Assembly: GCA_021774695.1 (NCBI GenBank) | Contig: JAJFIU010000140.1 | Span: forward strand, 1 to 54,046 | Reading direction: 5' to 3' | DNA from: Alphaproteobacteria bacterium | Lineage (GTDB): Bacteria > Pseudomonadota > Alphaproteobacteria > Sphingomonadales > Kordiimonadaceae | DNA length: 54,046 nt | In this document: positions 1 through 27,200 of the stretch, piece by piece | Numbering within the stretch: the first letter of the stretch is position 1 | How the letters are laid out: each line of letters starts with the position of its first letter | Notes under the pieces: model-generated | Told to the model about the DNA's origin: nothing | Database searches by the model: none | What the model saw: only the letters and a program-made list of their open reading frames with translations | Program-made: the position numbers and the translations under genes

Positions 1-1109
1 TGGACAATAGCCCAACTGTAGATCGTCCATTTCGGGAGCGCACAATTATTGATCTGCCGCTTGAGGTGAAAGCGGGCGGCTTGCCTGGTGAATTTGAAGG
101 TTACGGTGCGGTGTTCGGCAACACCGACCGCGACGGCGATGTGGTGGCGAAGGGCGCGTTTGCAGACAGCCTGAAGGTACGCCTTCCGGCCTTGCTGTGG
201 CAGCATAACGCCAAAGAGCCTATCGGCCGCTTTGACGTTGTGCGCGAAGACGACCGCGGCCTGTTTGTCAAAGGGCGGCTGGCACAGTCTGGCCGCGGGG
301 CAGAAGCATATGAACTATTAAAAATGGGTGCCCTTAATGGGCTTTCGATTGGTTTTGTAACCAAAGAGGCAATGCGCAACAGCGCGGCGGGCACCCGAAC
401 TATTAAGCGTGCTGATTTGATGGAAGTGTCACTGGTGACCTTTCCTGCCAACGAGCTTGCGCGCGTGCAAACGGTTAAACAAAGGACGGAATGTATGGAT
501 GCGACTTTCGAGACCGGCGACATCAACGACCCCCGAACCTTCGAGCGTTTCCTGCGCGAGCAAGGCTTTTCCCGCAACCGCGCCAAGGCGATAACGTCCA
601 AGGGATTTCGGGGCAATAGTGATCGTGTAGAAATAACTGATTTGATAACATCGGTGAAACAACGCCAATGCCGGCTGGAAACAAAAAGAAGTGTTGAATC
701 GCTACTCAATTTATTTGAGTCTGCAAGGACCCCTCTCAGACGCGTATCTGTTTTTCCGGGAAAAGAAAAAACTTTTGATATAGGCCATGTCCGTTTGGGG
801 CGGGTGACATTTGAAATTTCTGCGCCGTCTTGGGCTCGGTTTACTTGTTTTATTAATTACTATGATTTTTCCAGATCTCGCCCGCAGAGGCGTCAAGTAA
901 AACTCACTGACCAAATTACATCACGTTCGGTGAATAGAGGAAGGCCACCAATATTTAACCCCTTGAATCCGCAACATTGGAAAGAGCAATTCCCTGAGCA
1001 ATTAGTGCTGGACGGTACTAATGCGACTTTGGTCCATCATGAGCACGAAGACTCGTCAATTGCTAACTTAGTACAAAATCAAGGTCATTTTACCATTTCG
1101 GTACGGTAG
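1..1109 (+). CDS. Prohead (HK97-type) protease with extra C-terminal domain, 5' edge cut
   Basis: Head maturation protease that cleaves the capsid protein and scaffold in the prohead. The frame is open to the window edge; the first two bases (tg) could complete a start codon whose first base lies just outside, giving about 369 residues. The herpesvirus-like serine protease signature is visible: His in LLWQHNAKEPIGR, Glu in MEVSLVTFPAN and Ser in GLSIGF. The usual C-terminal tail of the family (DPRTFERFLREQGFSRNRAK) lies near residues 165-200. After it comes an unusual extension of about 160 residues with a beta-rich look and lower GC, not part of normal proteases. An in-frame ATG at 495 with AAAGGA at 481-486 could start a separate C-terminal product. 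The major capsid gene follows only after inserted accessory genes. Confidence 0.88.
   Translation, partial: DNSPTVDRPFRERTIIDLPLEVKAGGLPGEFEGYGAVFGNTDRDGDVVAKGAFADSLKVRLPALLWQHNAKEPIGRFDVVREDDRGLFVKGRLAQSGRGAEAYELLKMGALNGLSIGFVTKEAMRNSAAGTRTIKRADLMEVSLVTFPANELARVQTVKQRTECMDATFETGDINDPRTFERFLREQGFSRNRAKAITSKGFRGNSDRVEITDLITSVKQRQCRLETKRSVESLLNLFESARTPLRRVSVFPGKEKTFDIGHVRLGRVTFEISAPSWARFTCFINYYDFSRSRPQRRQVKLTDQITSRSVNRGRPPIFNPLNPQHWKEQFPEQLVLDGTNATLVHHEHEDSSIANLVQNQGHFTISVR
450..612 (+). repeat. Protease tail module, copy 1
   Basis: About 160 bp that recur in diverged form at 1385-1556. It encodes N-E-L-A-R-V-Q-T-V-K-Q-R-T, then the TGDINDPRTFERFLREQGF tail and the KGF motif. The two copies are similar at nucleotide level, with many differences at third codon positions, so the duplication is not recent and both copies have been under coding selection. 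Confidence 0.85.
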
Positions 1110-1116
1110 TTTTTGG

Positions 1117-1251
1117 TCACCAACCGCAGAACAGTGATTCCGACGCAAGAAACTCATAATAGATAACTGTGAGGAGTATACCCATCACAATGCCACGCAT
1201 ATGGTTGTTCCACTTATAGCGGCTCTCGTATTTTTCTTTGTCTATTTGCAC
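1117..1251 (-). CDS. Small membrane protein, 44 aa, SOS-box promoter
   Basis: Short leftward ORF found by reading the gap between two rightward genes. It starts with GTG at 1251, preceded by a full GGAGG Shine-Dalgarno (complement of 1258-1262) with a six-base spacer. The product has a charged, basic N-terminus (QIDKEKYESRYKWNNH), one hydrophobic segment (GIVMGILLTVIYYEFLA) and a short polar tail ending CGW, so it is probably a single-pass inner membrane protein. A perfect GAAC-N7-GAAC site lies 47 bases upstream of the start (1298-1312), suggesting LexA control. No family is recognised. The good ribosome site and placed operator are the case for it being real; it could be a small SOS-induced inhibitor or lysis-related peptide, but that is inference. 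Confidence 0.6.
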   Translation of the reverse strand: MQIDKEKYESRYKWNNHMRGIVMGILLTVIYYEFLASESLFCGW

Positions 1252-1297
1252 TTTTATCCTCCATTGCGGCTGTTCCTCTGCCCGATAAATGCAACGT

Positions 1298-1312
1298 GAA
1301 CAGGAGCAGAAC
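1298..1312 (-). promoter_or_regulatory. Putative LexA (SOS) box GAAC-N7-GAAC
   Basis: GAAC at 1298-1301 and GAAC at 1309-1312 separated by exactly seven bases; the reverse complement is GTTC-N7-GTTC, the alphaproteobacterial LexA operator. It sits upstream of the leftward 44-aa gene and about 120 bp before the rightward gene at 1430. Confidence 0.6.
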
Positions 1313-1384
1313 GCATCTTAGTTAGTAGCGAAAATATACCTCATTTACAATTTATTTTGTGGGCCATGAATTATTGAAAACACC

Positions 1385-1556
1385 AACCAACTAGCGCGTG
1401 TGCAGACAGTTAAGCAAAGGACAGCAGCAATGAACTTGGGCATGGATACGAGCTTCGGTACCGGTGATATCAACGACCCGCGAACTTTTGAGCGGTTCCT
1501 ACGCGAGCAAGGCTTTTCTCGCAACCGCGCAAAGGCGATTACGGCCAAAGGGTTTA
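1385..1556 (+). repeat. Protease tail module, copy 2
   Basis: Diverged copy of 450-612. The similarity begins abruptly at N-Q-L-A-R-V-Q-T-V, just after an in-frame stop at 1367, and runs through the conserved TFERFLREQGF segment to the KGF motif, after which the two encoded proteins diverge. Confidence 0.85.
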
Positions 1557-1972
1557 AGGGTGGTTTTGATGGTAGTGAAGAAATACAGGACATTATTGGT
1601 GAGTTGGAAGCCAAACAAAGAGCTATGGCAGGCCTTTGGAGTAGTACCCTGGAAACCAAAGGCTTTGAAAAGCTTGGCGTTCCAGCACATGCGGGCGGCT
1701 ATAAAGACAAGTGGTATAGATTTGATAGCTTTACTGTTGACCAGCCGTCCCAGTTTAAATTGAACTACCGCCCCCATGCTCCGCGCTCCGGGCCATTTTT
1801 CCTGCAAGTGAAATACCGTTCCCGTTCAGGTCGGATGGTTATAGAAGAACGTTCATCTCACGGCATTCGAAATTCGCCGTTTCTTATCCCCGCGGGAATT
1901 CACCAAGTTAGTGTAAAAGCAAAAAGCGGAGCGGGTTTCGCGCAACCCCTGTTGCTAACCCTATTTTGGTAG
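1430..1972 (+). CDS. Stand-alone protease-tail module fused to unknown beta-rich domain
   Basis: Protein of 180 residues from ATG 1430, chosen because AAAGGA at 1416-1421 stands eight bases upstream; an upstream GTG at 1400 is possible. Residues 1-45 repeat the C-terminal tail of the prohead protease. The rest has no recognised family but looks beta-rich: RFDSFTVDQPSQFKLNY, FFLQVKYRSRSGRMV, HQVSVKAKSG. The C-terminal extension of the protease upstream has a loosely similar pattern, so the two may be diverged paralogues. No transmembrane segment or catalytic motif is visible. It could be an accessory head protein recruited through the shared tail, or the original end of the protease gene displaced by an insertion. 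It converges with the leftward gene at 2004. Confidence 0.7.
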   Translation: MNLGMDTSFGTGDINDPRTFERFLREQGFSRNRAKAITAKGFKGGFDGSEEIQDIIGELEAKQRAMAGLWSSTLETKGFEKLGVPAHAGGYKDKWYRFDSFTVDQPSQFKLNYRPHAPRSGPFFLQVKYRSRSGRMVIEERSSHGIRNSPFLIPAGIHQVSVKAKSGAGFAQPLLLTLFW

Positions 1973-2003: not shown

Positions 2004-2699
2004 TCACTTTTTGGCTGAGTTGCGTTTCTTATAATCACGCCAGAAGGCTATGTGGTCTTGGTATCCAGCCATGTTTTCAACATCATCCGTTGCCTTGCAG
2101 CCCTCAAGAGCGTCGTTGCCGGTGAGCATTTTTAAAAGCGTAAAGCCTTCATAGGTTGCTTGCTCATCAACCATAAATATTATGTCAGAATAATGTTTTT
2201 CTTCCTCCTTGCTTGCAGCAAAAAGTTGAGCTTTGGTATCGTCGATATAAAAAGAGTTAATCTCATAACCCCATAGGCGAATTGAAGACAGTTGGTTGTC
2301 ATGCCCATGTAAGGCGTTTCCAACACGTTGTTTTGCTTTCGGGGTTAAATAGATCTCAACTGAGTAGAAGGATGGGCTGTCATCGGAGCCTTCAGATGGC
2401 ATGACACATACGCGTTCAATGTCATTTCGTGTTAAAGACTCAAGAGGGTTTGCAACACTGACCGTTATAAAAGGAAAGCTATCAGGCATTTCGGGTTTTG
2501 CCAGATCGAACAGATCAGGGCGGTCCTTATCCAGTTTGGGGTTGGTGAAAACACCTGACCAAGTGCCTTGGTATTTTGAGTTCATGTATGGATAGCTATT
2601 TTCGTCTGAGTGATGGTCGTTAAAGGCGTAGCTGACGAAGCCATAGCTACTGATAATTAGTACGATCGCTGAAAAAAAACCAAGAATGAATTTGTACAT
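2004..2699 (-). CDS. Membrane-anchored hypothetical protein (moron)
   Basis: Protein of 231 residues transcribed against the phage late genes. Residues 4-26 (FILGFFSAIVLIISSYGFV) form a signal anchor or signal peptide, so the polar remainder should be in the periplasm. No family is recognised. The body is acidic, with two conserved-looking cysteines (ERVCVMP and LEGCKAT) that could form a disulphide. A perfect GAAC-N7-GAAC box lies 32 bases upstream of the ATG, so it is probably SOS-induced. It is divergent from the secreted ubiquitin-like gene at 2838, with which it may work. The region is more AT-rich than the phage structural genes, as expected for a horizontally gained moron. Confidence 0.75.
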   Translation of the reverse strand: MYKFILGFFSAIVLIISSYGFVSYAFNDHHSDENSYPYMNSKYQGTWSGVFTNPKLDKDRPDLFDLAKPEMPDSFPFITVSVANPLESLTRNDIERVCVMPSEGSDDSPSFYSVEIYLTPKAKQRVGNALHGHDNQLSSIRLWGYEINSFYIDDTKAQLFAASKEEEKHYSDIIFMVDEQATYEGFTLLKMLTGNDALEGCKATDDVENMAGYQDHIAFWRDYKKRNSAKK

Positions 2700-2730: not shown

Positions 2731-2745
2731 GAACATAAACAGAAC
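2731..2745 (-). promoter_or_regulatory. Putative LexA (SOS) box GAAC-N7-GAAC
   Basis: GAAC at 2731-2734 and 2742-2745 with seven bases between, in the 138-bp divergent promoter between the genes at 2699 and 2838. Read on the minus strand the site is TGTTCT-N5-TGTTCT, with symmetry beyond the core matching the box at 22456. Confidence 0.65.
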
Positions 2746-2771: not shown

Positions 2772-2786
2772 GTTCATTTACAATTC
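2772..2786 (+). promoter_or_regulatory. Possible second, imperfect LexA box GTTC-N7-ATTC
   Basis: GTTC at 2772-2775 and ATTC at 2783-2786, one mismatch from the GTTC-N7-GTTC consensus and oriented toward the rightward gene at 2838. It could give the divergent promoter one operator per direction. One mismatch in AT-rich DNA is weak support. Confidence 0.3.
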
Positions 2787-2837: not shown

Positions 2838-3143
2838 ATGAAACGATTGATTTTGGCGGTGATGCTTGCGGGACTGGGCCTTGGCCAAGCCAGCGCAAGT
2901 GACTATGTGTTTGTTAAGCATGGCAGCGAGCGGCATCAAATTAGGAATGTTGATATGGAAACGATGTCGGTTTGCAGCCTAATGCAACGGGTGGCCAGCA
3001 GACTTGGCCTTGAAATGCGAAAGTTCCATTTGACGCAAGGCGGAGGTCCTTTGAATGAAGGAAAAACACTTTCCAGTGTACATTTAAGCCGAGGATCGGT
3101 TTTGCAAATTAAAGAGGTAAGGTCTTCCAATCAATGCACTTGA
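2838..3143 (+). CDS. Secreted ubiquitin-like protein (moron)
   Basis: Protein of 101 residues with a clear signal peptide (MKRLILAVMLAGLGLG then an AxA site, ASA|SD), leaving about 80 residues outside the cytoplasm. The mature part follows the ubiquitin pattern: an opening strand YVFVK (ubiquitin QIFVK), a helix with SLMQRVASRLGL (ubiquitin VKAKIQDKEGI), and GPLNEGKTLSSVHLSRGSVL, which lines up with ubiquitin QLEDGRTLSDYNIQKESTL, followed by QIKEVR (LVLRLR). The end is SSNQCT with no di-glycine, so conjugation by the usual route is unlikely. AGGGGAG precedes the ATG. It is divergent from the membrane-anchored gene at 2699, next to a LexA box, and is followed by a terminator at 3203. The fold assignment comes from reading the alignment by eye; the role is unknown. 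Confidence 0.75.
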   Translation: MKRLILAVMLAGLGLGQASASDYVFVKHGSERHQIRNVDMETMSVCSLMQRVASRLGLEMRKFHLTQGGGPLNEGKTLSSVHLSRGSVLQIKEVRSSNQCT

Positions 3144-3202
3144 ACGATTATTAGCCGCTTATTGAGTGGCAACTTCATCGCTACTTAACAACCAAAAATT
3201 TC

Positions 3203-3236
3203 AACCCGGCGCAGCAATGCAGCTGGGTTTTCTTTT
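3203..3236 (+). terminator. Rho-independent terminator
   Basis: Stem AACCCGGC (3203-3210) pairs with GCTGGGTT (3222-3229), followed by TTCTTTT. It ends the ubiquitin-like moron transcript and separates it from the capsid gene. Confidence 0.75.
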
Positions 3237-3390
3237 ATCTATCCCAAGTTCTTGGTCTAATCCATCCGGTGCGATGCCGGGGTTTGGCCTCTGCTAACGG
3301 TCCATTTGGTCTGCGCGAGGCAGGCATTTGGCCTTTTTGACCGCTGGCAACTGCCAGCATCCCTTAACATAATAGAGAAGGACAAATGTC

Positions 3391-4500
3391 ATGGAAATGA
3401 CTGACCTGAAAACTGCGATTGATGATTACACCGACGCAGCAGAAAACGGCATCCTGGGCCTTAAAGACAGGCTTGATGCTATGGAAACCAAAATGGCCCG
3501 CCCGGGCGACGCTGGCAGTTTGGGCAGCGCGGCGAGCGGCGATGCGTTTGAGCACAAGCACGCGTTCCTGCATGGTTTTATCACCAAAGGTGATGATAGC
3601 TTGCTGAAAGACTTGGAGGCCAAAGGCCTTTCAACCGCTACCGGCGGTGACGGTGGTTTTGCTGTGCCCACAGTGATAGACAGTGAGATTGAGAAGCAAT
3701 TACGCGACCTGTCGCCGATGCGCTCCATCTGTAAAGTCAAAGTCATTGAAACGTCAAAATACACACGCCTTGTGAGCGCAAGTGTGGCTGGCATGTCTGG
3801 CTGGGTTGGTGAAACGACTACAGATAGCACGCGTCCGGAAACTACAACACCCACACTGACCGAAGTCGCGATCACGCCAGGTGAAATTTACGCCAATGCA
3901 GCCGCGACCCAGCGCGCGCTGGATGACATGCAGTTTGATGCCGAAGCATGGCTGACCGAAGAAGTGGCAGAAGAATTTGCCGCCCAGGAAGGCACAGCGA
4001 TTATCACTGGCGACGGTGTCAACAAACCCAAAGGCTTCTTGACTGAGGCGGCCATCGGCAAAGTAAAAACTGGCGTTGATGGTGGTTTCCCGGCGACCAA
4101 CCCATCCGATATTCTGGTCGATCTGGTGCATGCACTGGGCAGCCGTTACCGGCAGGGCGCGAAATTCGTGATGAACAGCGCAACGCTGGCGGAAATTCGC
4201 AAGATGAAAGATGCAGACGGTAACTTCATCTGGCGGCCTGGCCTGATTGAAGGTCAGCCTGATATGCTGCTGGGTCATCCCGTGGTCGAAGCCGAAGACA
4301 TGCCTGATATGGCGGCGGCGTCCCTGTCGGTTGCATTCGGTAACTTTGAGCGTGGTTATACCATTGTGGACCGCGCTGGCACCCGCGTGTTGCGTGACCC
4401 CTATACCAACAAGCCAAACGTATTGTTTTACGCCACCAAGCGCGTGGGCGGCGCAGTGGTGAACGCAGATGCGATCAAGCTGTTGGAGTTTGCGGTCTAA
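3391..4500 (+). CDS. Phage major capsid protein, HK97 family
   Basis: Structural shell protein of 369 residues. Residues 1-78 form the scaffold-like delta domain (acidic, helical, LKDRLDAMETKM), removed by the upstream protease near the glycine-rich GLSTATGGDGGFAVP. The HK97 fold core follows, with the typical AAATQRALDD and ITGDGVNKPKGFL segments, and RVGGAVVNADAIKLLEF at the end. AAGGA at 3378-3382 is eight bases before the ATG. A perfect hairpin (GCTGGCA at 3343-3349, TGCCAGC at 3352-3358) lies just upstream of the ribosome site. The gene is followed by a strong terminator. Normally the protease gene directly precedes the capsid gene; here about 2.3 kb of accessory DNA intervenes. Confidence 0.95.
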   Translation: MEMTDLKTAIDDYTDAAENGILGLKDRLDAMETKMARPGDAGSLGSAASGDAFEHKHAFLHGFITKGDDSLLKDLEAKGLSTATGGDGGFAVPTVIDSEIEKQLRDLSPMRSICKVKVIETSKYTRLVSASVAGMSGWVGETTTDSTRPETTTPTLTEVAITPGEIYANAAATQRALDDMQFDAEAWLTEEVAEEFAAQEGTAIITGDGVNKPKGFLTEAAIGKVKTGVDGGFPATNPSDILVDLVHALGSRYRQGAKFVMNSATLAEIRKMKDADGNFIWRPGLIEGQPDMLLGHPVVEAEDMPDMAAASLSVAFGNFERGYTIVDRAGTRVLRDPYTNKPNVLFYATKRVGGAVVNADAIKLLEFAV

Positions 4501-4532
4501 TAAGCGCGAACTTCACTGAAAGCATTTGAGAA

Positions 4533-4555
4533 GCGGGGCAAGCCCCGCTTTTTTT
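4533..4555 (+). terminator. Rho-independent terminator after capsid gene
   Basis: GCGGGGC (4533-4539) and GCCCCGC (4542-4548) form a GC-rich stem followed by seven T residues. It would lower transcription of the fibre gene relative to capsid. Confidence 0.85.
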
Positions 4556-4597
4556 ACATCTATTTCTTGCCATTTACACCGCACAAAGGATTGCTGG

Positions 4598-7500
4598 ATG
4601 ACGCTTGCAAACAGAGTACGCGAACTGACGCTGACGACCGGCACTGGTGACATTACACTGGGCGGTGCGCTGGCGGCCCACATCACGTTTGCCGACGCTT
4701 TCACCGTGGGTGACACGGTTACCTATGTGATCGAAGACGGCGATAACTATGAGATTGGTAGCGGCACTTTAATGGCGGCTGACACACTGGTGCGAACGGT
4801 GGTCGGTGAGACGCTCGTGGACGGGGTTTATGACAAAACAAGCCCTACCGCAATTACCCTCTCAGGCAACGCCCTGGTGTTTTGTGCCGTGACGGCTGAG
4901 TTTTTGCTCGACCCGAATATGCTGGCCGATGTGATTTCAGAAGTAACGCCCGGGGCCGGTGTTTTGGTTGACGGCGCGCTGATCAAGGACGGTGCGTTTA
5001 CGGCGCAGGGAGCAGGGACGGTTTTTGACGCGCACGTGGTGCAGGACACAATGGCTGGGACAATTCCGGTTCACTGGCAAAAACAAGCCACCAAATTTAT
5101 ATTGCAAGCAGGCGGCGTCGGCGACCTCGCCGTCTTCGATCTTGCCAATTTAGATACCACTTTCTCTGGCGACTTATCTCTGAACAACAATTCTCTGTTT
5201 AGTCTGGATAGTATTATAAGAGGCACCGGGGCAGACAGCCTTATCGTTACGGGTGGCGGTTCTACAAGCTTGGGTGCTTTAATACAAATGTATGGGCAGA
5301 CCCACGCAACTCGCGCAGACGATATGGACTTTAGAGCCAGCGGAGCAACTTGGTTAAGCTGGGACAATAGCGCGGGCTCTATACAGGTTGGTGGTGATGT
5401 TGCTCTTTCTAGTGACATTTTCGGAACCAACGCCACTGACGGCGTTGTTTACGGTGGCGGAACGTCTAATATTGTCGGTGCTAATATCCTTATGAGGGCA
5501 GAGGGACACGCCGACGCCAACGATATGTATTTTCGGTACGGCACGAACCTTTGGGCCGAGTATGATGCAAGTGCTTCATTGTTCGATGTTAAGACGACGA
5601 TGCAAGTCGGCGGTGATATCTCCATTGGTGGCACTGATATTTTCAGAGATATAAATACTGGCGTTATCCAACTAAACGGAAGCAATGCAAATGATACCGG
5701 CGGTGCTTTCGTAGGGTACGGCAGCGCCCACATTACCAACGCAGATGACTATGTTCTGAAGTCGGGCAGTACATGGACACAGCATTACGATGCCAGTCTC
5801 GGCAAACTTTTGGTTAATGTTGAGGCACAGTTCTCTGGTTCCGTAATTCGTAACGGCGGCGGCACCGGTTTTACTCAAGTCAACGACTTATCAAACACCA
5901 TTTTCACTGTCGGCACCACGTCTGATGCGGGCCTTATGAAGCTTAATGAAGCTAATGGAACAGAATTTCTCAGAGCTGATGCACTAGCTAAATTTCTTAC
6001 TGTATCTGGAGCTGCCACTTTCTCTGGCAAAATCACTGGTGATGATGGGGCTACAATAACAGATAGCGTTAATAGTTCCAGCAATGCAGTACTAGAGCTA
6101 CTTAGTAGCGGCAACGGTGATGTAAACTTTCTCAAGATGGGAGCAAACACTTGGGTAGGTAATGAACCAAGTGGTAGTTTATTTCTTGCTTCAAACGCGT
6201 ACAATAATAGCGGGACAAATACCTACAGAGGTGGAGCAGATACAACGACCGGATGCTCTATACTTGAACTTCTCAAGCCTGCCTTATTAACAGATGTAGC
6301 ATTTCAATTTGTAACATCAAGCGCGGACGTGGTGACAGATGCGGACATTACCGAGGTAGCTGTTTTAAGAATATTGCAGAATGGGTCAGCATTCCTTGAC
6401 AGTAGTGAAACTACAGCACTTACTATCACACACACAGATGGTGCTGCGGTTTGGCAAAAATTTGCTAACAGTACCAGTGATTACTTCGTGGGCTATGAGG
6501 AAACTCAAGGGTTTGTACTTTCTCCAGATACAAGTGCTATACACTTAGCCATCAACGCCACAACAGGTAATGCCACATTTGGCGGAGATATCATAGCCAG
6601 CGGTGGCGCTGGAGGTTTCTACAACTCTGTAGATACTCTGGCTACATATGTTTCTGGGGGTACTGCGACAAATGTGGGTGCCAATGTTGGTTTCTTTGGG
6701 GCAACGCACGCCACAAACGCCAATGACATAATTTTCAGAAACGGCCCAACCACTATATCGCAGTGGGATGCCAGTGCTAGTGTCTGGAACTATCAGGGTA
6801 ATAACCTAGTTGGTGTCGGCGACATTACAATGTCCGGTGACGCCATCTACCGTGACATTGCTACAGGATCATTTATTCTAACTGGTGGATCAACCTCCAG
6901 CCTTGGTGCGCGTACAGTGATGTACGGGGAGGGTCATGCGACACGGGCAAACGACCTTGATTTCTTTAGTGGCGCAACACGGACCTTAGCTTACGATGAC
7001 AGTCTAAATACTTGGGACTTCCAAGGAAACAACATCATCGGTGTGAACACGTTGACCATATCTGATGATGCCGGAATATTCCGTAGCATAGATACAGGGA
7101 CACTAACTTTAGCCGGTGGCAACGGCTCTGCAACAGGGGGTTACATAGCCCTGCGTGGACAAAATCATGCCACCCAAGCAAACGATATTTTCCTTGGTGT
7201 GGGGGCAGCACCAAAACTACATTATGATGACAGTATCGGCACTTGGGATTTCCAAAATCTGGCACTAACCGAAGTGGGCGAAATACAACTATCTGGTTCT
7301 CGCATCATACGTAACGGCCCTAGCGGAGTTATGCAGATATCGGGCGGCAGTCACCAAGATGCTGGCACTAACTTCCTTTTATACGGGGAAAGCCACGCTA
7401 CTAACTCTAATGACTTTATACTTAGAGCAGGAACATCAAACGTGCTATTCTATGATGATAGTGCTGGTTTCTTTAGCTTCCAGAGTAAAGACATATCTTC

Positions 7501-9049
7501 TGTTAATTCTCTAAGCCTGAATAGCGATGATGGTGTCTTTAAGAGCACAACGAACAGTACCCTTACCATAGCCGGTGGTTCAGATGGCAATTTGGGCGGT
7601 AATGTTGTCTTCTTTGGGGAAAGCCACGCCACTCAGGCAAAAGATATAGCTTTTAGGTCAGACACCACAAATAGGCTCGTTTGGGATAACAGCGCAAGCC
7701 ACTGGACGTTCCAGAGTAACCCTATATCTGGTGTTGGTAATATTACCATGACCGGTAACCTGTTACATATAGCCTCGTCGGCAGATACACAAACCACACT
7801 GCGGCTGGAAGCAAATCGCTCTGGTGCAGGACAAAACTTAGGCAGCACAGAGTATTACTGGAACAATACTAGGGTAGCTTCAATATTTGCCCGCACAGGA
7901 AGTGACACGATTAACAGGGACGATGCAGACTTAGCATTTACCACGTCCAGTGGTGCCGGAGCGGTAATTAGACTGCTCATTGAAAGCACTGGAACTGCGG
8001 ATTTCCAAGGTAATGATCTTATAGGGGTGGGTTCTCTAAGTCTGAATAGCGACGATGGTATTTTTAAGAGCACAACGAACAGTACCCTTATATTAGCCGG
8101 GGGCAATGCAGCCAATGACGGGGCGTTCTTAGCTCTCAGGGGCTCAAGCCACGCTACAGAAGCTAACGATATATACTTAGGCGTTAACGGGGGTACTCGA
8201 TTAAAATGGGATGAGAGTGCCGATAATTGGAGCTTCACAAATAAGAGTATTGTAGATGTCGGCGACATCGCTAGAGGTGTCATTGGTGACGCATTAGGTC
8301 TAGCTGGTGGGTCAACGTCAGTTCTAGGTGGCAGACTGATTTTATACGGTGAAAGCCACGGAACACAAGCAGGAGACATTGAATTAGCATCGGGAGCGAG
8401 TACCAAGCTTCAATGGAATGACAGCACGCTTCGTTGGGAGTTTGGCACTAACATTATATCCGGCGTAAGTGACATGCGTAGAGGCGGTGATGGTACTGGC
8501 TTGATGTACCTATCTGGCGGCTCAAATCTCAATAACGGCGGCAACATTGTTATGTATGGCGAAAGCCATGCAACGCAAGCTAACGATATAATTTTCAGAA
8601 ATGGAACAGCAACCGTACTACAGTGGGATGCCAGCAATGATTTTTGGAATTTCCAAGGTAAGTCTATAGTTCAACCTACTTCAATTTACCAAGGAACTAC
8701 TACAGGCAGTTTAATAGTAAGTGGTGGCTCTACCACGGGTCTTGGTAACAACATTGTTCACTATGCAGAGAGCCATGCAAGCAGACCCAATGGGATGCTT
8801 ATCCGGGCGGATACAACGGCAATCCTTGAGTGGCATAACGGCTCTGGTGAATGGCGCTATCAATCTAATGACATAACTGGTGTCAACTCCATTGAGCTTG
8901 AAAGTTTAATTCAGCTCAATGAAATCACAGCAGAACCTACAACACCCACTGACGGAATGATTGTGTACGCAGATGGCACAACATGGAATCCAGGCGGCGG
9001 CGAAGGTGTTTATGCTCGAGTGGCAGGTGCTTGGGCAAAGATGACGTAG
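4598..9049 (+). CDS. Repetitive phage fibre / virion surface protein
   Basis: Protein of 1483 residues. The start is ATG 4598, because AAAGGA (4585-4590) is seven bases upstream and any earlier start would lie in the capsid terminator. The N-terminal part (LANRVRELTLTTGTGDITLG) is typical of the virion-attached end of alphaproteobacterial phage fibres. From about residue 195 to 1430 there are twelve diverged units of roughly 75-110 residues, each with a Y/FGESHATQANDI-like motif, a WDxSxxxWxFQ segment and an xGVxxI strand, as in beta-solenoid or trimeric fibres. The C-terminus (TPTDGMIVYADGTTW) is a common fibre tip. Some units are nearly identical at DNA level (7511 and 8037), so repeat number may change by recombination. 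Its place between capsid and connector genes is unusual for a tail fibre; it may bind the head or neck. Confidence 0.85.
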   Translation: MTLANRVRELTLTTGTGDITLGGALAAHITFADAFTVGDTVTYVIEDGDNYEIGSGTLMAADTLVRTVVGETLVDGVYDKTSPTAITLSGNALVFCAVTAEFLLDPNMLADVISEVTPGAGVLVDGALIKDGAFTAQGAGTVFDAHVVQDTMAGTIPVHWQKQATKFILQAGGVGDLAVFDLANLDTTFSGDLSLNNNSLFSLDSIIRGTGADSLIVTGGGSTSLGALIQMYGQTHATRADDMDFRASGATWLSWDNSAGSIQVGGDVALSSDIFGTNATDGVVYGGGTSNIVGANILMRAEGHADANDMYFRYGTNLWAEYDASASLFDVKTTMQVGGDISIGGTDIFRDINTGVIQLNGSNANDTGGAFVGYGSAHITNADDYVLKSGSTWTQHYDASLGKLLVNVEAQFSGSVIRNGGGTGFTQVNDLSNTIFTVGTTSDAGLMKLNEANGTEFLRADALAKFLTVSGAATFSGKITGDDGATITDSVNSSSNAVLELLSSGNGDVNFLKMGANTWVGNEPSGSLFLASNAYNNSGTNTYRGGADTTTGCSILELLKPALLTDVAFQFVTSSADVVTDADITEVAVLRILQNGSAFLDSSETTALTITHTDGAAVWQKFANSTSDYFVGYEETQGFVLSPDTSAIHLAINATTGNATFGGDIIASGGAGGFYNSVDTLATYVSGGTATNVGANVGFFGATHATNANDIIFRNGPTTISQWDASASVWNYQGNNLVGVGDITMSGDAIYRDIATGSFILTGGSTSSLGARTVMYGEGHATRANDLDFFSGATRTLAYDDSLNTWDFQGNNIIGVNTLTISDDAGIFRSIDTGTLTLAGGNGSATGGYIALRGQNHATQANDIFLGVGAAPKLHYDDSIGTWDFQNLALTEVGEIQLSGSRIIRNGPSGVMQISGGSHQDAGTNFLLYGESHATNSNDFILRAGTSNVLFYDDSAGFFSFQSKDISSVNSLSLNSDDGVFKSTTNSTLTIAGGSDGNLGGNVVFFGESHATQAKDIAFRSDTTNRLVWDNSASHWTFQSNPISGVGNITMTGNLLHIASSADTQTTLRLEANRSGAGQNLGSTEYYWNNTRVASIFARTGSDTINRDDADLAFTTSSGAGAVIRLLIESTGTADFQGNDLIGVGSLSLNSDDGIFKSTTNSTLILAGGNAANDGAFLALRGSSHATEANDIYLGVNGGTRLKWDESADNWSFTNKSIVDVGDIARGVIGDALGLAGGSTSVLGGRLILYGESHGTQAGDIELASGASTKLQWNDSTLRWEFGTNIISGVSDMRRGGDGTGLMYLSGGSNLNNGGNIVMYGESHATQANDIIFRNGTATVLQWDASNDFWNFQGKSIVQPTSIYQGTTTGSLIVSGGSTTGLGNNIVHYAESHASRPNGMLIRADTTAILEWHNGSGEWRYQSNDITGVNSIELESLIQLNEITAEPTTPTDGMIVYADGTTWNPGGGEGVYARVAGAWAKMT

Positions 9050-12057: not shown

Positions 12058-12345
12058 TTAGACGGCTACGCCGGTTGTGCTTGAAGGATCAGAACGTCTT
12101 GCAGTCAGACAGTCACTGCATTTATTGACTTTGTTACGCTGGATATAACGGTCAACAATGTTGCGCCTAAAATAGTGGCCGCATCGTTTACAGCGTTCTT
12201 TTGGTGTGGGCACAACGAAAACGACAAAGATCAATGCCGCCAAAGACAACATCGCGATAACAGACCAATGAGCGCCAGGAAAAATCACTACTGGTGCTAT
12301 GACCGCCAGTAGTAAAACACCTAATCCATAGTCAATTTTAGTCAT
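12058..12345 (-). CDS. Membrane zinc-ribbon-like moron inside tail operon
   Basis: Protein of 95 residues (96 from the tandem ATG at 12348), transcribed against the late operon. Two hydrophobic segments (GLGVLLLAVIAPVVIF and VIAMLSLAALIFVVFVV) precede a cytoplasmic tail with CKRCG and CSDC pairs, about 23 residues apart, that could bind zinc. No family is recognised. It sits exactly between the tail completion and tail tube genes, which are normally adjacent. Only one GTTC half-site is present upstream, so SOS control is not supported here. The 233-bp leader to 12581 is AT-rich and contains the inverted repeat ACCAAT/ATTGGT near 12460-12480. Confidence 0.65.
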   Translation of the reverse strand: MTKIDYGLGVLLLAVIAPVVIFPGAHWSVIAMLSLAALIFVVFVVPTPKERCKRCGHYFRRNIVDRYIQRNKVNKCSDCLTARRSDPSSTTGVAV

Positions 12346-12581
12346 CATATCGTCCAGTAATTATACAATTGGCGTTCATCTACCTAATTTTATTTCGCAA
12401 GTCGAGCTGAAATTGCGGATTTTCTATTCAGGCAGAATACACGTTATAAGAGCACAATCAAGTTAACCAATCGTTAACAATTGGTCGCAAATGTCTATAT
12501 TTTCAGCTGTGAAAAGTCCCGTGCTTATCAGCGTTAGTAACACCCATTTCTTAACAAGCTATTTAACAAAAGGAGATGTGC

Positions 12582-21812: not shown

Positions 21813-22412
21813 CTAGCTAAATTGTTTGGCTATGCGGTTCATTTTTTCATTGAGTAGGGTTTCAAGTAATGTGCCGATGTTGCGTTGATAATCACTGCTA
21901 AGATTGTAGTGGCTATACTCTTCTAAGGGATGGCGATCGCCCTTTTTAAAAGCATCTTCTTCCAATGTGTCCAACGCTAGAATGGCATCTAGCATTGTAT
22001 GGTACGAACTTGCAGCTGTTCGTAGGGCCTCAAACTCTTCCTGCAATCTATTTTCTAAGTATATGTCATCTTCGGTTTGCCTGTTGGCGAAATGGCTAGC
22101 TAGGGATACTTCCGCGGCCGTCAATTCCTGGTAATACAATTTAACCTGTTGGCGAAACGGGGCTCCGCGCGGGCCAACCTCACCGGCCTTCCTAAACATT
22201 GTATGATCGTTGCCAAGAACCAGCTTCGACAGTGCAAATGCGTCTTCAAGAGCGGGATCGTAAAAAGCTATAGAAAAGGGTGGAGGTTCCTCTTTCGCCA
22301 TCTCCGATATGGTGAAAGGCAACCAATTAAGAACCACAAGGATCAAAACAACGGCGGCAATCCAAATTTTGGCTACTGTAGAAACTTGCCCCTGATCTTC
22401 CATGCTCGACAT
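21813..22412 (-). CDS. Membrane-anchored hypothetical protein (SOS cassette)
   Basis: Protein of about 199 residues; the frame extends to a GTG at 22448, but that start would touch the LexA box, so ATG 22412 (or 22403) is preferred. Near residue 15 is a membrane segment (IWIAAVVLILVVLNWL); the remainder is an acidic helical domain (YYQELTAAEVSLASHF, LQEEFEALRTAASSYH). Size and topology resemble the neighbour at 21174, suggesting related periplasmic-facing proteins. Divergent from the gene at 22502 across a shared SOS operator. Confidence 0.65.
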   Translation of the reverse strand: MSSMEDQGQVSTVAKIWIAAVVLILVVLNWLPFTISEMAKEEPPPFSIAFYDPALEDAFALSKLVLGNDHTMFRKAGEVGPRGAPFRQQVKLYYQELTAAEVSLASHFANRQTEDDIYLENRLQEEFEALRTAASSYHTMLDAILALDTLEEDAFKKGDRHPLEEYSHYNLSSDYQRNIGTLLETLLNEKMNRIAKQFS

Positions 22413-22455
22413 ATCCTCGCGGTTACCAATCCTCTGTATCACGCACACTTAAAAA

Positions 22456-22470
22456 GAACAAATAAAGAAC
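22456..22470 (-). promoter_or_regulatory. Putative LexA (SOS) box GAAC-N7-GAAC
   Basis: GAAC at 22456-22459 and 22467-22470, spacer seven bases. With flanks the minus-strand form is TGTTCT-N5-TGTTCT, like the box at 2731. It is 44 bases from the leftward start (22412) and 32 from the rightward start (22502). Confidence 0.65.
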
Positions 22471-22501
22471 AGTTTAATATTTTAGACGTGAGGGTTTTTT
22501 G

Positions 22502-23962
22502 ATGACATTTTCCATTTCCGGGAGTGTTGGCGGCGGCGGTAAGAACCGCATTCATGATGTAGCCAAAATGCAAGCGGCGTTTACTGCTATCGGTTTTCAA
22601 CGAAAAAAATACGCCGTCGATGGTAAAATGAATTCCTTTGACGTTGCGGTCGGGCGGTACATTGAAGCCAATCCGGTTAAAGTAAACGGTAATCGAAATT
22701 ACCCATCTGCAATTGAACCAAAAGGTCAGATCATTGAAAGCCTCCGCAAAGCCTTGAAGGGTTCGACAGTTGAAAAACTGGAGGCAATTCCTGGGACTAT
22801 AATTCTGTACGAACCAATTGCCAACAATCGCGGAAATGACAAAGATTACTTGATCCCGCCATTTCTATCCTTACCACGTGACTTTATGTCAGGCGGGACC
22901 AATTATCGCGGCTATATTGACCGTGTAGAGATTCCAAACACGTCGGCACAGTTTAAATTTGTCGTTACAATGTCATTGGGTTACGTCGGTCGTTTTTGGG
23001 ACCCTAAAAGCCAAAGGCTTATCAGAACTGCGCCTGCGCAGATGAAGGCCTTTATTGACGAGCAGTTGCGCCGTGACGGGAAAGGTTGGACCTATTTGCC
23101 ACCTCCGAAAAACATCAGCCATTTCAGGTTGCAGTCTGTGGTCGTTCCGGCAATTGACTCAATAATTAACAAGCTTAGCTCCCTTGGGGGTAGTAGCCGG
23201 ATCGTTTGGGACGATTTGAAGAAAAGCTACAGGATACCACCAAAGGATAAGATATTGGAAATTGCGGGCCGTATCCACGCCGAAACATGCGCGGCTACGG
23301 GTGAGGCCGGCGGCAAAGCGGTAAACAAACCATGGGCCGATTATGCGGCAACGGTTTTGGAACGCAGCCTGAATAGGAATGTTGTGGTCGGCAACGAGCG
23401 GCACTGCGACAGTTGTCAAACGCTGGCCATTCTCGTGCGGTACAATCTGACGGCGATGATAGCTTTTCGAGAGAAACAACAGGTGATTTCAAATCAGTTG
23501 AATGCGTTCATTTGGAAAAATTCAAATGATGCCGACGTCGAACGAGCCCGCGATATTTTCAAAAAAGCTGGTTCTAACCTTATTCCCATCGTCGGAGACG
23601 CGATATTCGGAATAGAGCATAGTGCTCAAGAAATGCTGATAAACGACGCTAAGTCCATGACTGAAATGGTTATTGATCTGCAGGCAAAGTGGGGGCGCGA
23701 CAAAAAATATCTCCAGCTGCTCATGAGGTTGCTGACATTGGTAAACGCCGCAATTGCTGCGGCAGCCGTGATTAATTTGGGCGCAGAGCTTATTATCAAA
23801 GCCTTCAAGGACGGGAAAATTCAGGAAGCAACTTTGAAGGCCCAGCGAGATTTATATAACATCCAACTAGAATATGATCAGGCTGAATTGTTGGAGCTTC
23901 GTGCCAAGAGAGACTTTGACGCTAGAAATTGCCAATCTTGGGGTTATCTCTACAACGAATAA
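22502..23962 (+). CDS. Peptidoglycan-binding-like protein with hydrophobic C-terminal helices; bacteriocin-like candidate
   Basis: Protein of 486 residues; GAGGG seven bases before ATG 22502. Residues 4-85 look like a peptidoglycan-binding repeat domain (ISGSVGGGGKNRIHDVAKMQ followed by AVDGKMNSF). The middle (about 100-220) is beta-rich and ends in a basic helical part. Around residues 298-310 is a His/Cys motif (HCDSC). Residues 355-450 are helical with a hydrophobic run (LVNAAIAAAAVINLGAELII), then a final coiled-coil-like helix. No signal peptide. It is SOS-boxed and faces two membrane-protein genes, like a toxin with immunity genes. No enzyme motif is recognised; the toxin role is inference. 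Confidence 0.7.
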   Translation: MTFSISGSVGGGGKNRIHDVAKMQAAFTAIGFQRKKYAVDGKMNSFDVAVGRYIEANPVKVNGNRNYPSAIEPKGQIIESLRKALKGSTVEKLEAIPGTIILYEPIANNRGNDKDYLIPPFLSLPRDFMSGGTNYRGYIDRVEIPNTSAQFKFVVTMSLGYVGRFWDPKSQRLIRTAPAQMKAFIDEQLRRDGKGWTYLPPPKNISHFRLQSVVVPAIDSIINKLSSLGGSSRIVWDDLKKSYRIPPKDKILEIAGRIHAETCAATGEAGGKAVNKPWADYAATVLERSLNRNVVVGNERHCDSCQTLAILVRYNLTAMIAFREKQQVISNQLNAFIWKNSNDADVERARDIFKKAGSNLIPIVGDAIFGIEHSAQEMLINDAKSMTEMVIDLQAKWGRDKKYLQLLMRLLTLVNAAIAAAAVINLGAELIIKAFKDGKIQEATLKAQRDLYNIQLEYDQAELLELRAKRDFDARNCQSWGYLYNE

Positions 23963-24220: not shown

Positions 24221-27200
24221 ATGGCTACCATCAACGGCACTGCAGGCGACGACATACCCCTATCAGGTACCGGCAACGCAGATTTGATTAATGGGTTGGC
24301 AGGCAACGATGCCATTCTTGGACTGGGCGGTGCCGATACCATTTTCGGCGATGCAGGTGACGACGATATTCTTGGCGGTGACGGCGACGATAAAATCGAT
24401 GGCGTGTCCGGCTGCAATGACCTGGACGGCGAAGCTGGCAATGATACAATTCTTGGTGGAACCGGCGGCGATATTATCGACGGCGGCACTGGCGACGACA
24501 GAATTTTTGCCGGGGATGGTCAGGATACCATTGACGGCGGCACCGGCGCAGATTTGATCCATGGTTGCAATGACAACGATGTCATTCTCGGCGATGCCGG
24601 CAATGACACACTGTTCGGCAACGCTGGCATCGATAATATTAATGGTGGTGCTGATGCCGATAGGATTGATGGCGGCACCGGCGCAGATGTGCTTGACGGC
24701 GGCACCGGCAATGACATTGTAATTGGCGGTGATGGTGATGATGTTATTTTGGGCGACACCGGCGCAGACCAATTGTTTGGTTGTAACGACAATGACAATA
24801 TAAGAGGCGGCACCGGCAACGACACTCTTGGCGGTGATGACGGCACAGACGAACTTTTCGGCGACGAAGGTAACGACAAAATTTCTGGCGGCGACGGAAA
24901 TGACATGATTTTCGGTAACGCTGACAATGATAGCCTTTCTGGAGACGCTGGTGACGACGACATTTTCGGTGGGGTTGGCAACGACACACTGCGAGGCGGG
25001 CTCGGCGCGGACGAGCTGTCCGGTGAAGACGGCAACGACAAACTATTCGGTGGCACTGAAAACGATTCTATCCTGGGCGGCGACGGCACGGATCAGCTAA
25101 ACGGCGAAGCAGGCAACGACACCCTGCTTGGCGGTGCTGGTAATGACGTGCTGGACGGCGGAGACGGAACCGACATTGCCCGATTTAGCGGGGACCTCGA
25201 CAGTACCGGCGATATTACGTCGGTCAGCGGCGCTGATTTCCGCGTCACTGTTGAAGGCTCAGATACAGTTGAAAACATCGAAACGTTGCAGTTTGACAAT
25301 GTCACGCTGTCTACCACAACAGCGCAGGATGTCGGTACATCTATCGCAATAACAACCACAGCTGAAGGAACAACCGACGCAACCTTTGCATCCACAGTTC
25401 TGGCGTGGGATCCAACCGCTAGCACACCTTTGCAAGCCTCCTACAGCGACAATGACTGGACTATTATAGATGTAAACGGCACCGCAGTTGCAAATAACGG
25501 CGACGCTGCGGTTGTGGCGCTGGGTACCATCACTATTGTTGATACCGACGGTGACGGCATGGCTGAAACCATCCGTTTTGAAGGCGATAATTCGCTTCGC
25601 AATGCGGCTGGAGATCAAAATCAGACAATTACAATTACCCTGGAAAATGCCGATGGGTCTTCCACGACAACTATGGAATTGGACCTGACGTTAACTGCCG
25701 ACACCAATTTTTCTGCAGACGCGGGCGGTTCAACTCTTACCGGTGACGACGATGCTGAAACCTTTGTAGGCGGCGTTGGCAACGACAGCATTATCGGAAA
25801 TAACGGCGATGATACAGTTACCAGCGGGGCCGGTATGGACACTGTTCGTGGTGGTCGCGGTGATGATGTAATTTCCAGCGGTGACGGAACTGTACGCGAC
25901 GTGTTGTTCGGTAATAACGGTGATGACACCATCAACGGCGGTTGCGGCGACGATATCATTGACGGTGGTAACGGTGATGATGTAGTTAGCGGCGGTAACG
26001 AAAACGACACCATCAGTGGCGGCTGCGGTGACGACGAACTGACCGGCGGAAACGGTGACGATTCGTTAGTAGGCGGTTGCGACGATGACCTTCTGATCGG
26101 CGGCAACGGCGATGACCGCCTGTTCGGCAACAATAATGCAGATACGCTTACCGGTGGTAACGACAATGACTTTTTGGACGGCGGCGCTGGTATTGACCTT
26201 CTGACCGGCGGGTTGGGCAACGATAATATTACCGGCGGCTCTGAAGCTGACATCGCGGTGTTTGACGGCGACATAACAGGCGAAGCCGATATTGATGACG
26301 CGGGCGGTGATTTCTTCATCACTGTTGAAGGCAATGATACAGTCACCGAAGTGGAAACCTTGCGTTTTGACAATGTGACGCTCAGCTCAACCACTGATGC
26401 CGATATCGGGCTAGATTTTACACTAAGTGCGGTTGCGGGCTCAAGCACTTCCGATACTGTTGCGCAGCATGTTCTCAGCTGGACACCGACTGTTGGGGGT
26501 GATTCGCTCAATGAATATGTGGATGATGATTGGTCGATCATACGGGTGAACGGATCCAATGTAACCGACGGGCAGTCTGTGTCGCTCAACCTCGGTGATG
26601 TCACAGTTACGGATGCTATTGGCAACAGTAATGTTGATACTATTACGTTTGCGGCGGATGCTGACGAAGGCAATGACACTAGTGATCAAACACAGGTTAT
26701 TGTGGTTCGGCTTCAAAACGCTGCAACCGGTGAAACAGTCGATATTAATGTCACGCTTGAAGTGCCGAGTGCCACAACCCTCAATGGAACAAGCAGCGCA
26801 AATACCATTAACGGCGACGACGACGCCGAAACCATTAATGGTCTGGGCGGCAACGATAACCTGAACGGCAATGGTGGTAACGACATCATCAATGGCGGCG
26901 ACGGCAACGACAATATTGATGGTGGTGCAGGTAACGAGACAGTGCAGGGCGGTGCTGGTGCTGACGATATTGAAGGCGGCGACGGCGATGATAGCCTAGT
27001 AGGCGATACGGCGTTTGATACCGGAAACGATACAATCTCGGGCGGCGCTGGCGCTGACGACATCCAGGGCGGTAAAGGCGATGACCAACTGACCGGCGGA
27101 GCCGATAATGATGCGATAGACGGCGGCGCCGGAACTGACACCGCAACCTTTGACGGTGATCTCGACGCTGCCGCTGACATTACTACAGCTGCTGGTGATT

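What the first reader, a model, noticed from the sequence alone, without database searches (positions are those of the whole stretch)
2838..3143. Secreted ubiquitin-like protein encoded in a prophage
A 101-residue protein with a clear signal peptide whose mature part follows ubiquitin from first strand to last (YVFVK / helix / GPLNEGKTLSSVHLSRGSVL / QIKEVR against QIFVK / helix / QLEDGRTLSDYNIQKESTL / LVLRLR). It lacks di-glycine and would work outside the cytoplasm. It lies between prohead protease and capsid, with a LexA-like operator in its promoter. Exported bacterial ubiquitin-like proteins are rare (the Bacteroides fragilis BfUbb is the known case); one tied to phage induction would be new.
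Basis: partly seen in the sequence, partly recalled or inferred. Interest (0 to 1): 0.82.

Follow-up and report, generated by a model that had tools for sequence, protein, structure and literature searches.

The report
SOS-regulated exported ubiquitin-like protein
Marine Kordiimonas bacteria carry, inside an inherited virus-like gene cluster, a small protein that looks like ubiquitin but appears built for export and switched on by DNA damage, next to a membrane protein that may be its partner; it may serve in competition between bacteria, though that is not tested.

Summary
Window 2838-3143 encodes a 101-aa protein with a signal peptide and a ubiquitin fold: Pfam ubiquitin E=9.4e-5 (just under the curated cut-off), AlphaFold2 pLDDT 94 on an 18-sequence alignment, Foldseek top hit ubiquitin (TM 0.82/0.90), BfUbb sixth. 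The LexA-type operator is real: exact GTTCN7GTTC boxes lie within 167 nt of 15 of 19 homologues, and the genome's own lexA gene has one.

The interpretation changes in three ways. (1) The "prophage" is better called a GTA-like cluster: it keeps its chromosomal place, tracks host genes and has no tyrosine integrase nearby. (2) The protein is half of a pair: at 18 of 19 loci a membrane-anchored protein is encoded divergently from the same intergenic region. (3) Each of 18 mature homologues has exactly two cysteines, one in a C-terminal Q-C motif where ubiquitin has Gly-Gly, so conjugation is not expected.

Most likely it is an SOS-induced, exported, non-conjugating binding protein, used like BfUbb in antagonism, with the partner as immunity protein or receptor. 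Fold and operator are well supported; export is read from sequence; function is inferred (about 0.4). It is a new variant of the exported-ubiquitin theme.

The parts
2838..3143 (+). gene of the exported ubiquitin-like protein (101 aa, P0001)
   Evidence: ORF; Pfam PF00240 E=9.4e-5; homologues
2838..2897 (+). signal peptide, residues 1-20, cleavage by eye ASA^S
   Evidence: inspection and alignment A1; no predictor run
2898..3140 (+). mature ubiquitin-like domain, residues 21-101
   Evidence: AF2 pLDDT 94.3; Foldseek ubiquitin/BfUbb
2973..2975 (+). codon of invariant Cys46 (start of the helix)
   Evidence: invariant in 13 of 13 and 18 of 18
3135..3137 (+). codon of invariant Cys100, C-terminal Q-C motif
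   Evidence: invariant in 13 of 13 and 18 of 18; exactly two Cys in each of 18 mature proteins
2731..2745 (-). LexA-type operator GTTCTGTTTATGTTC, between the divergent genes
   Evidence: such a box in 15 of 19 loci, 14 of 19 within 160 nt
2772..2786 (+). second LexA-like site GTTCATTTACAATTC (one mismatch), overlapping the -35 of the predicted promoter
   Evidence: the matching place has an exact box in L097, L098, G014, G023, G013 and L047
2777..2805 (+). predicted sigma-70 promoter TTTACA-17-TAGTAT
   Evidence: 9 of 12; 4 found against 2.6 expected in the region, so weak by itself
3203..3236 (+). intrinsic-terminator-like hairpin plus T-run after the gene
   Evidence: fold z -3.39 for 3140-3245; not listed by the scan
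2004..2699 (-). divergent partner: 231 aa, N-terminal hydrophobic anchor by eye, two invariant Cys (C98, C201)
   Evidence: (partner at 18 of 19 loci), alignment A3
1400..1972 (+). ORF repeating the protease C-terminal motif (INDPRTFERFLREQGFSRNRAKAITAKGF) joined to another sequence
1298..1312 (-). LexA-type box before ORF 1400-1972
66..1109 (+). HK97 prohead protease (its start lies at the contig edge)
   Evidence: PF04586 E=2.5e-31
3391..4500 (+). HK97 major capsid protein
   Evidence: PF05065 E=6.5e-86

Best explanation
Supported by computation: the gene encodes a protein of ubiquitin fold with a signal peptide (by eye), two invariant cysteines and no Gly-Gly, so it should act outside the cytoplasm by binding, not by E1/E2 conjugation. 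It is transcribed from an intergenic region, usually with LexA-type boxes, that it shares with a divergent gene for a membrane-anchored protein with two invariant cysteines; the pair is an optional part of a host-inherited GTA-like cluster, between protease and capsid. Inferred: on DNA damage both proteins are made and exported; cysteines 46 and 100 form a disulfide that staples the tail where ubiquitin would conjugate; the ubiquitin-like protein leaves by secretion or by lysis of producing cells and binds an envelope target in sibling or rival cells, much as BfUbb antagonises relatives, while the anchored partner binds it in the producer as immunity protein (or is its receptor).
For: Fold. 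Signal peptides by eye and invariant Cys. LexA-type box in 15 of 19 loci within 167 nt, 14 of 19 within 160 nt against a mean of 0.08 and a maximum of 2 in 500 shuffles; control 19 of 573 mechanically called ORFs, 7 of the 19 being partner genes; own lexA gene carries GAACTAAAAGAGAAC before its start. Partner divergent at 18 of 19 loci; in 29 genomes both 13, protein only 1, partner only 3, neither 12; in the 3 partner-only genomes it lies beside the capsid, like an orphan immunity gene; up to 3 partner matches per genome. Fast, loosely coupled divergence: mean identity 0.38, partner 0.19, capsid 0.70 over 15 loci. Patchy presence, 14 of 29, some genomes incomplete. BfUbb precedent: secreted, C-terminal Cys, intraspecies antagonism (PMC5705921, PMC3352274, passages).
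Against: No toxicity, secretion or binding was or could be tested. Protein and partner distances do not correlate (Mantel r 0.13, p 0.16; partial r 0.06): no co-evolution signal. dN/dS 0.13-0.27 shows constraint, not an arms race (half of the pairs saturated). In G015 the gene lies outside the cluster, with no box and no partner. BfUbb producers were reported not to need an immunity protein. In 5 of 19 loci no exact box lies within 160 nt. The recA locus has no exact box, and genome-wide the pattern is rarer than its reversed control (107 against 160). The partner profile was built from these loci, so the co-occurrence is partly by construction.
Confidence: 0.4

Rival explanations
1. Checkpoint in the producer's own envelope: protein and anchored partner form a periplasmic complex that delays division or times lysis (the kind of job done by SOS-induced inner-membrane proteins such as SidA of Caulobacter, recalled), with no role against other cells.
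For: Both genes share an intergenic region with LexA-type boxes and both products look exported or membrane-anchored, so they should meet in the same periplasm. Constraint on sequence.
Against: Patchy presence (14 of 29), fast divergence, partner-only genomes; G015 has the protein without a partner.
Confidence: 0.25
2. Superinfection or uptake exclusion: a moron-like exported pair that alters the envelope so that cells making the particles do not take them (or related phages) up again.
For: Place inside the structural gene block with a predicted promoter and terminator-like hairpin of its own; optional between protease and capsid.
Against: The cluster looks host-inherited rather than a mobile phage; the window's protein and partner match nothing in PADLOC.
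Confidence: 0.15
3. Structural protein of the particle (head decoration, or a ubiquitin-like domain as in lambda-type tail assembly protein I).
For: Lies between protease and capsid; ubiquitin-like domains are known in phage tail assembly proteins (recalled); one Caudovirales protein at rank 34 of the viral fold search.
Against: Signal peptide by eye and exactly two Cys in 18 of 18 mature members; LexA-type boxes; absent from 9 of 23 genomes that have the capsid; no PHROGs family better than E 0.0025, each in one member only.
Confidence: 0.04
4. A relic without function that keeps its fold by recent descent.
For: The G026 copy is frameshifted.
Against: Invariant residues among members as low as 28% identical to the window copy, dN/dS well under 1, recurring operator.
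Confidence: 0.05

Closest known systems
BfUbb, the exported ubiquitin homologue of Bacteroides fragilis (PDB 8hm1, 8hm3)
   Same: Bacterial, signal peptide, ubiquitin fold (TM 0.82/0.85), no Gly-Gly, C-terminal Cys (PMC3352274 passages)
   Different: 24% identity; BfUbb is 63% identical to human ubiquitin and thought to be acquired from another kingdom (abstract start); no partner gene, LexA box or phage-like context appears in the BfUbb passages I saw; here there is a second invariant Cys and a paired membrane gene
Ubiquitin / ISG15 / SUMO / NEDD8 (conjugated eukaryotic modifiers)
   Same: Same fold and core
   Different: No Gly-Gly; export signal; the position matching Ile44 varies (my reading)
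RcGTA-like gene transfer agents of Alphaproteobacteria
   Same: HK97 head genes, GTA-gp10-type tail protein, GTA-type 3-TM holin; fixed place, inheritance with the host
   Different: The 1088-aa tail protein falls far short of the GTA megatron model (16.7 against 800 bits); an S24-type repressor and LexA-type boxes lie in or beside the cluster
Colicin-type SOS-regulated bacteriocins with membrane immunity proteins (recalled)
   Same: LexA-type boxes, possible membrane-anchored partner
   Different: Signal peptide, ubiquitin fold, divergent gene order; toxicity unknown

Membership tests
Ubiquitin-like (beta-grasp) superfamily | Profile match to PF00240 over the curated cut-off | tested here: inconclusive
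   E=9.4e-5 but 22.6 bits, below the 25.4 cut-off; 11 of 18 members at E<=0.1
Ubiquitin-like (beta-grasp) superfamily | Ubiquitin fold | tested here: met
   pLDDT 94.3; TM 0.82/0.90 to ubiquitin
Conjugating ubiquitin-like modifiers | C-terminal Gly(-Gly), or a tail that is cut to it | tested here: not met
   18 of 18 carry QC at or up to three residues before the C-terminus, none Gly-Gly
Conjugating ubiquitin-like modifiers | E1/E2/JAB genes next to it | tested here: not met
   None among 26 window ORFs scanned with Pfam; the window beyond about 31 kb and the rest of the genome were not scanned for them
BfUbb-type exported ubiquitin | Signal peptide | tested here: inconclusive
   Clear by eye in the full-length members (the L013 row begins inside its own); no predictor available
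BfUbb-type exported ubiquitin | C-terminal Cys in place of Gly-Gly | tested here: met
   against PMC3352274; 8 of 18 end exactly in Cys, the others one to three residues later
BfUbb-type exported ubiquitin | High identity to eukaryotic ubiquitin | tested here: not met
   16-24% in the 50 listed Foldseek alignments
BfUbb-type exported ubiquitin | Extracellular antibacterial activity | not testable with these tools
   needs protein and strains
LexA regulon | GTTCN7GTTC in the promoter region, as before the genome's own lexA | tested here: met
   in 15 of 19 loci
LexA regulon | Induction by DNA damage | not testable with these tools
   no expression data
Temperate prophage | Integrase near the structural genes | tested here: not met
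   63 PF00589 matches in 10 genomes: none within 180 kb of the cluster on the contig held in nine relatives, nor on the window's contig; serine recombinases and transposases not tested
Gene transfer agent | Fixed locus, inheritance with host | tested here: met
   PPTase gene right of the cluster in 8 of 12 genomes compared; of the other four G028 truly lacks it within 20 kb, the rest were cut short; capsid tracks PPTase r 0.80 p 0.008 (n 7) and kdsA r 0.87 p 0.006 (n 6)
Gene transfer agent | Particles packaging random host DNA | not testable with these tools
   needs particles
RcGTA family | GTA megatron tail protein | tested here: not met
   NF048004 16.7 bits of 800 for the 1088-aa protein

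The most novel reading that the evidence does not exclude
A periplasmic ubiquitin-like protein that attaches by chemistry other than isopeptide linkage: its conserved C-terminal Cys, induced by SOS together with a membrane-anchored protein that itself has two invariant Cys, forms a disulfide-linked or disulfide-gated complex with that partner (or with a target in rival cells), a redox-run counterpart of ubiquitin tagging tied to a gene-transfer particle.
Probability: 0.08. Interest if true: 0.9.

Novelty: new variant of a known kind. Interest (0 to 1): 0.66.

Why it matters
Exported bacterial ubiquitins are known to me from one case, BfUbb, a near copy of eukaryotic ubiquitin. Here is a diverged family in Alphaproteobacteria, in 14 of 29 genomes of one bacterial family; in samples of 385 genomes of the class and 398 of the phylum nothing outside that family matched at E<=0.001. 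It would show that ubiquitin folds were put to work outside the cell more than once, and it links such a protein to the DNA-damage response and to a host-inherited virus-like cluster. Named strains in the records (for example K. aquimaris JCM 16665) make it testable.

Tried and rejected
Single-sequence AF2 failed (pLDDT 49) and was not used. Viral-contig and phage searches with the protein alone found no homologue; plasmids gave two chance-level hits at E 1 and 2. Weak order-level hits G139 and G101 (E about 0.006) were dropped: one has stops inside, both cover part of the profile. A MIZ zinc-finger hit (E 0.0046, below cut-off) on ORF 12058-12348 looked like a SUMO-ligase lead; the four members seen are small proteins with a hydrophobic stretch and two CxxC motifs, and I judged the hit spurious. 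Co-evolution of protein and partner was tested and not found. A SecD-like look of the partner, seen by eye, got no support: best Pfam hit of any member E 0.019, to an unrelated family, PDB none under E 0.9. The disulfide 46-100 could not be measured, as no coordinates are given; its support is Cys invariance and a tail block (residues 71-80 of the mature model) with mean pLDDT 91.

Papers: 15 papers hold 'BfUbb' (listing), two of them seen as passages. Searches for Kordiimonas/Kordiimonadales/Kordiimon- with 'gene transfer agent' returned none. One paper holds 'ubiquitin-like', 'gene transfer agent' and 'signal peptide'; its passages show only a cited review (PMC4936722). A GTA co-evolution paper (PMC10883770) has no occurrence of 'Kordiimon' or 'ubiquitin'. 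Listings were seen only as listings. The work on BfUbb and its isomerase target is recalled, apart from the PDB title.

Full report
What is there. ORF 2838-3143 (+) encodes 101 residues. It starts with a signal peptide ending ASA^S by inspection and carries the ubiquitin fold. Pfam PF00240 scores E=9.4e-5, 22.6 bits, just below its cut-off of 25.4. A profile of 18 members finds ubiquitin-like chains in the PDB, for example ISG15 at 2.1e-5, and polyubiquitin at 2.1e-17 by summing repeats that are each weak. AF2 on the mature domain gave pLDDT 94.3 and pTM 0.83 with the order strand-strand-helix-strand-strand by DSSP, plus short bridges. Foldseek placed ubiquitin first (6k2u, TM 0.82/0.90, rmsd 1.3 A) and BfUbb sixth (8hm1, TM 0.82/0.85, 24% identity); 414 matches had E<=0.001. 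In viral models the listed hits are nearly all proteins of eukaryotic viruses with ubiquitin or ubiquitin-like parts; one Caudovirales protein is at rank 34.

Family. In 29 genomes of the same family, 14 have the protein: 12 of 19 in the own genus and both of the sister genus g2. At order level 16 of 296 had a match at E<=0.01, two of these weak and dropped; at class level 1 of 385 and at phylum level 2 of 398, all from the own genus. Record titles of loci that coincide in contig length and position name Kordiimonas aquimaris (G009) and K. marina (G012) as holders and K. laminariae (G011) and K. sediminis (G027) as lacking it. A profile scan of the loci then held added five members: L047 and viral contigs L097, L098, L099, L101. 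So 19 loci are known here.

Anatomy. Alignments of 13 and 18 members share the invariant residues Cys46, Phe63, Leu65, Leu72, Gln99 and Cys100 (window numbering). Each of 18 mature proteins has exactly two cysteines. The tail ends in QC in 8 of 18, QCT in 5, QCR in 3, and a longer form in 2. Gly-Gly never occurs at the end. In an exported protein this points to one disulfide; it was not measured. The residue matching Ile44 of ubiquitin varies between members (my reading), so the usual ubiquitin recognition patch is not kept.

Regulation. The window holds five exact GTTCN7GTTC sites against 1.63 expected; 2 of 100 shuffles reach five. One, 2731-2745, is between the gene and its divergent neighbour; a one-mismatch site at 2772-2786 overlaps the predicted -35 box. 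Of 19 loci, 15 have an exact site within 167 nt of the assumed start and 14 of 19 within 160 nt; 500 dinucleotide shuffles gave a mean of 0.08 and at most 2. Among 573 other mechanically called ORFs of the region 19 have such a site; 7 of those are partner genes, 6 belong to three other gene groups of the cluster, 1 is divergent from one of these, and 5 are scattered. The genome's own lexA has GAACTAAAAGAGAAC 31 nt before its start; the recA locus has no exact site. Genome-wide the pattern is not enriched (107 against 160 for the reversed control), so the case rests on position and recurrence. A terminator-like hairpin follows the gene.

The partner. At 18 of 19 loci the gene upstream is divergent: 219-294 aa with an N-terminal hydrophobic anchor in the 16 loci where it was called mechanically, and visible in one frame in L034 and L101. 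Aligned members are only 15-33% identical to the window copy, but two cysteines are invariant in 18 sequences from 16 loci. Nothing in Pfam (best E 0.019, one member), PHROGs (0.025, one member) or the PDB (0.9) explains it, nor PADLOC for the window copy. In the 29 genomes both occur in 13, the ubiquitin-like protein alone in 1 (G015, where the gene is elsewhere), the partner alone in 3 (G008, G011, G017; beside the capsid each time), neither in 12, six of which also lack the capsid. A hand-computed one-sided Fisher value is about 1e-4; it is nominal, because the genomes are related and the partner profile was built from these loci. G024 and G002 have three partner matches each.

The setting. 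The capsid matches once in each of 23 of 29 genomes and not in the other 6. Around it terminase, portal, protease, connector, tail and lysis genes keep one order. To its right the phosphopantetheinyl transferase gene recurs in 8 and kdsA in 6 of 12 genomes compared. Of the four without the former, G028 lacks it within the 20 kb seen; G001, G011 and G016 were cut short. Capsid distances follow those of the transferase (r 0.80, p 0.008, n 7) and of kdsA (r 0.87, p 0.006, n 6); terminase and portal give r 0.70-0.86 with p 0.001-0.05; the capsid is about as conserved as kdsA (0.74 and 0.75). Of 63 tyrosine-integrase matches in 10 genomes none lies within 180 kb of the cluster on the contig held in nine relatives. 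An S24-type repressor gene borders the cluster on the left in 7 of 12. This is a host-inherited, GTA-like cluster. Whether it packages random DNA is unknown, and by its tail protein it is not in the RcGTA family. Papers holding Kordiimon- and 'gene transfer agent' were not found.

The cassette. In the near relative L039 (capsid 88% identical in its best segment) protease and capsid are 453 nt apart without either gene; in the window they are 2281 nt apart. L039 keeps one copy of a LexA-box segment that the window has twice (1298-1361 and 2730-2791). ORF 1400-1972 repeats the end motif of the protease. So the pair was gained or lost as part of a modular zone.

Evolution. Over 15 loci the mean identity is 0.38 for the protein, 0.19 for the partner and 0.70 for the capsid. 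The protein tracks the capsid weakly (r 0.28, p 0.07) and not detectably the partner (r 0.13, p 0.16); partner and capsid give r 0.27, p 0.02. Of the 12 closest pairs six allow an estimate of dN/dS, 0.13-0.27; six are saturated in dS. One copy (G026) is frameshifted at the end of the signal peptide.

How it most likely works. The closest working model is BfUbb: cut by signal peptidase I and secreted, ending in Cys, antagonising strains of its own species (PMC5705921 and PMC3352274, passages). A PDB title shows a BfUbb complex with a peptidyl-prolyl isomerase. By analogy I propose an SOS-induced exported antagonist with a membrane-anchored immunity protein or receptor. Shown by computation: fold, family, boxes, gene pairing, setting. 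Inferred: export, disulfide, induction, binding, antagonism. Against it stand the missing co-evolution signal, the constraint on sequence, and the partnerless copy in G015.

Verdict.

Noticed in passing
window 66-1109 and 1400-1972; L029 4645-8961; L036 8326-9147: The prohead protease's C-terminal motif (about 30 residues, INDPRTFERFLREQGFSRNRAKAITAKGF) is repeated in separate ORFs, each joined to a different sequence; could be a tag that draws cargo into the procapsid.
   Followed up: partly
window 21813-22448 (-), 22456-22470, 22499-23962 (+): A second divergent pair with an exact LexA-type box (GTTCTTTATTTGTTC) at the lysis end of the cluster; the 487-aa product (related ORFs in G009, G024, G025) has no Pfam family at E<=0.01 and a hydrophobic stretch near its end.
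   Followed up: no
window 1137-1361; L039 2466-2686: Similar segment after the protease with a LexA-type box and, in L039, a small antisense ORF (52 aa) with a hydrophobic end.
   Followed up: no
window 4526-9049: 1507-aa repetitive fibre-like ORF right after the capsid, without Pfam family; related ORFs vary in length between genomes, up to 1570 aa in L038.
   Followed up: no
window 24221-28825: 1534-aa RTX-repeat protein (28 stretches of PF00353) between the cluster and the PPTase gene; related ORFs in G013, G023, G024.
   Followed up: no
L034 9934-10304 (G026): Copy of the gene with a frameshift at the end of its signal peptide although the G024 copy, 94% identical in the domain, is intact; assembly error or lost allele.
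   Followed up: no
L037 9814-10137 (G015): The one copy found outside the cluster, between a beta-lactamase-family gene and a LytTR regulator, without LexA-type box or partner.
   Followed up: partly
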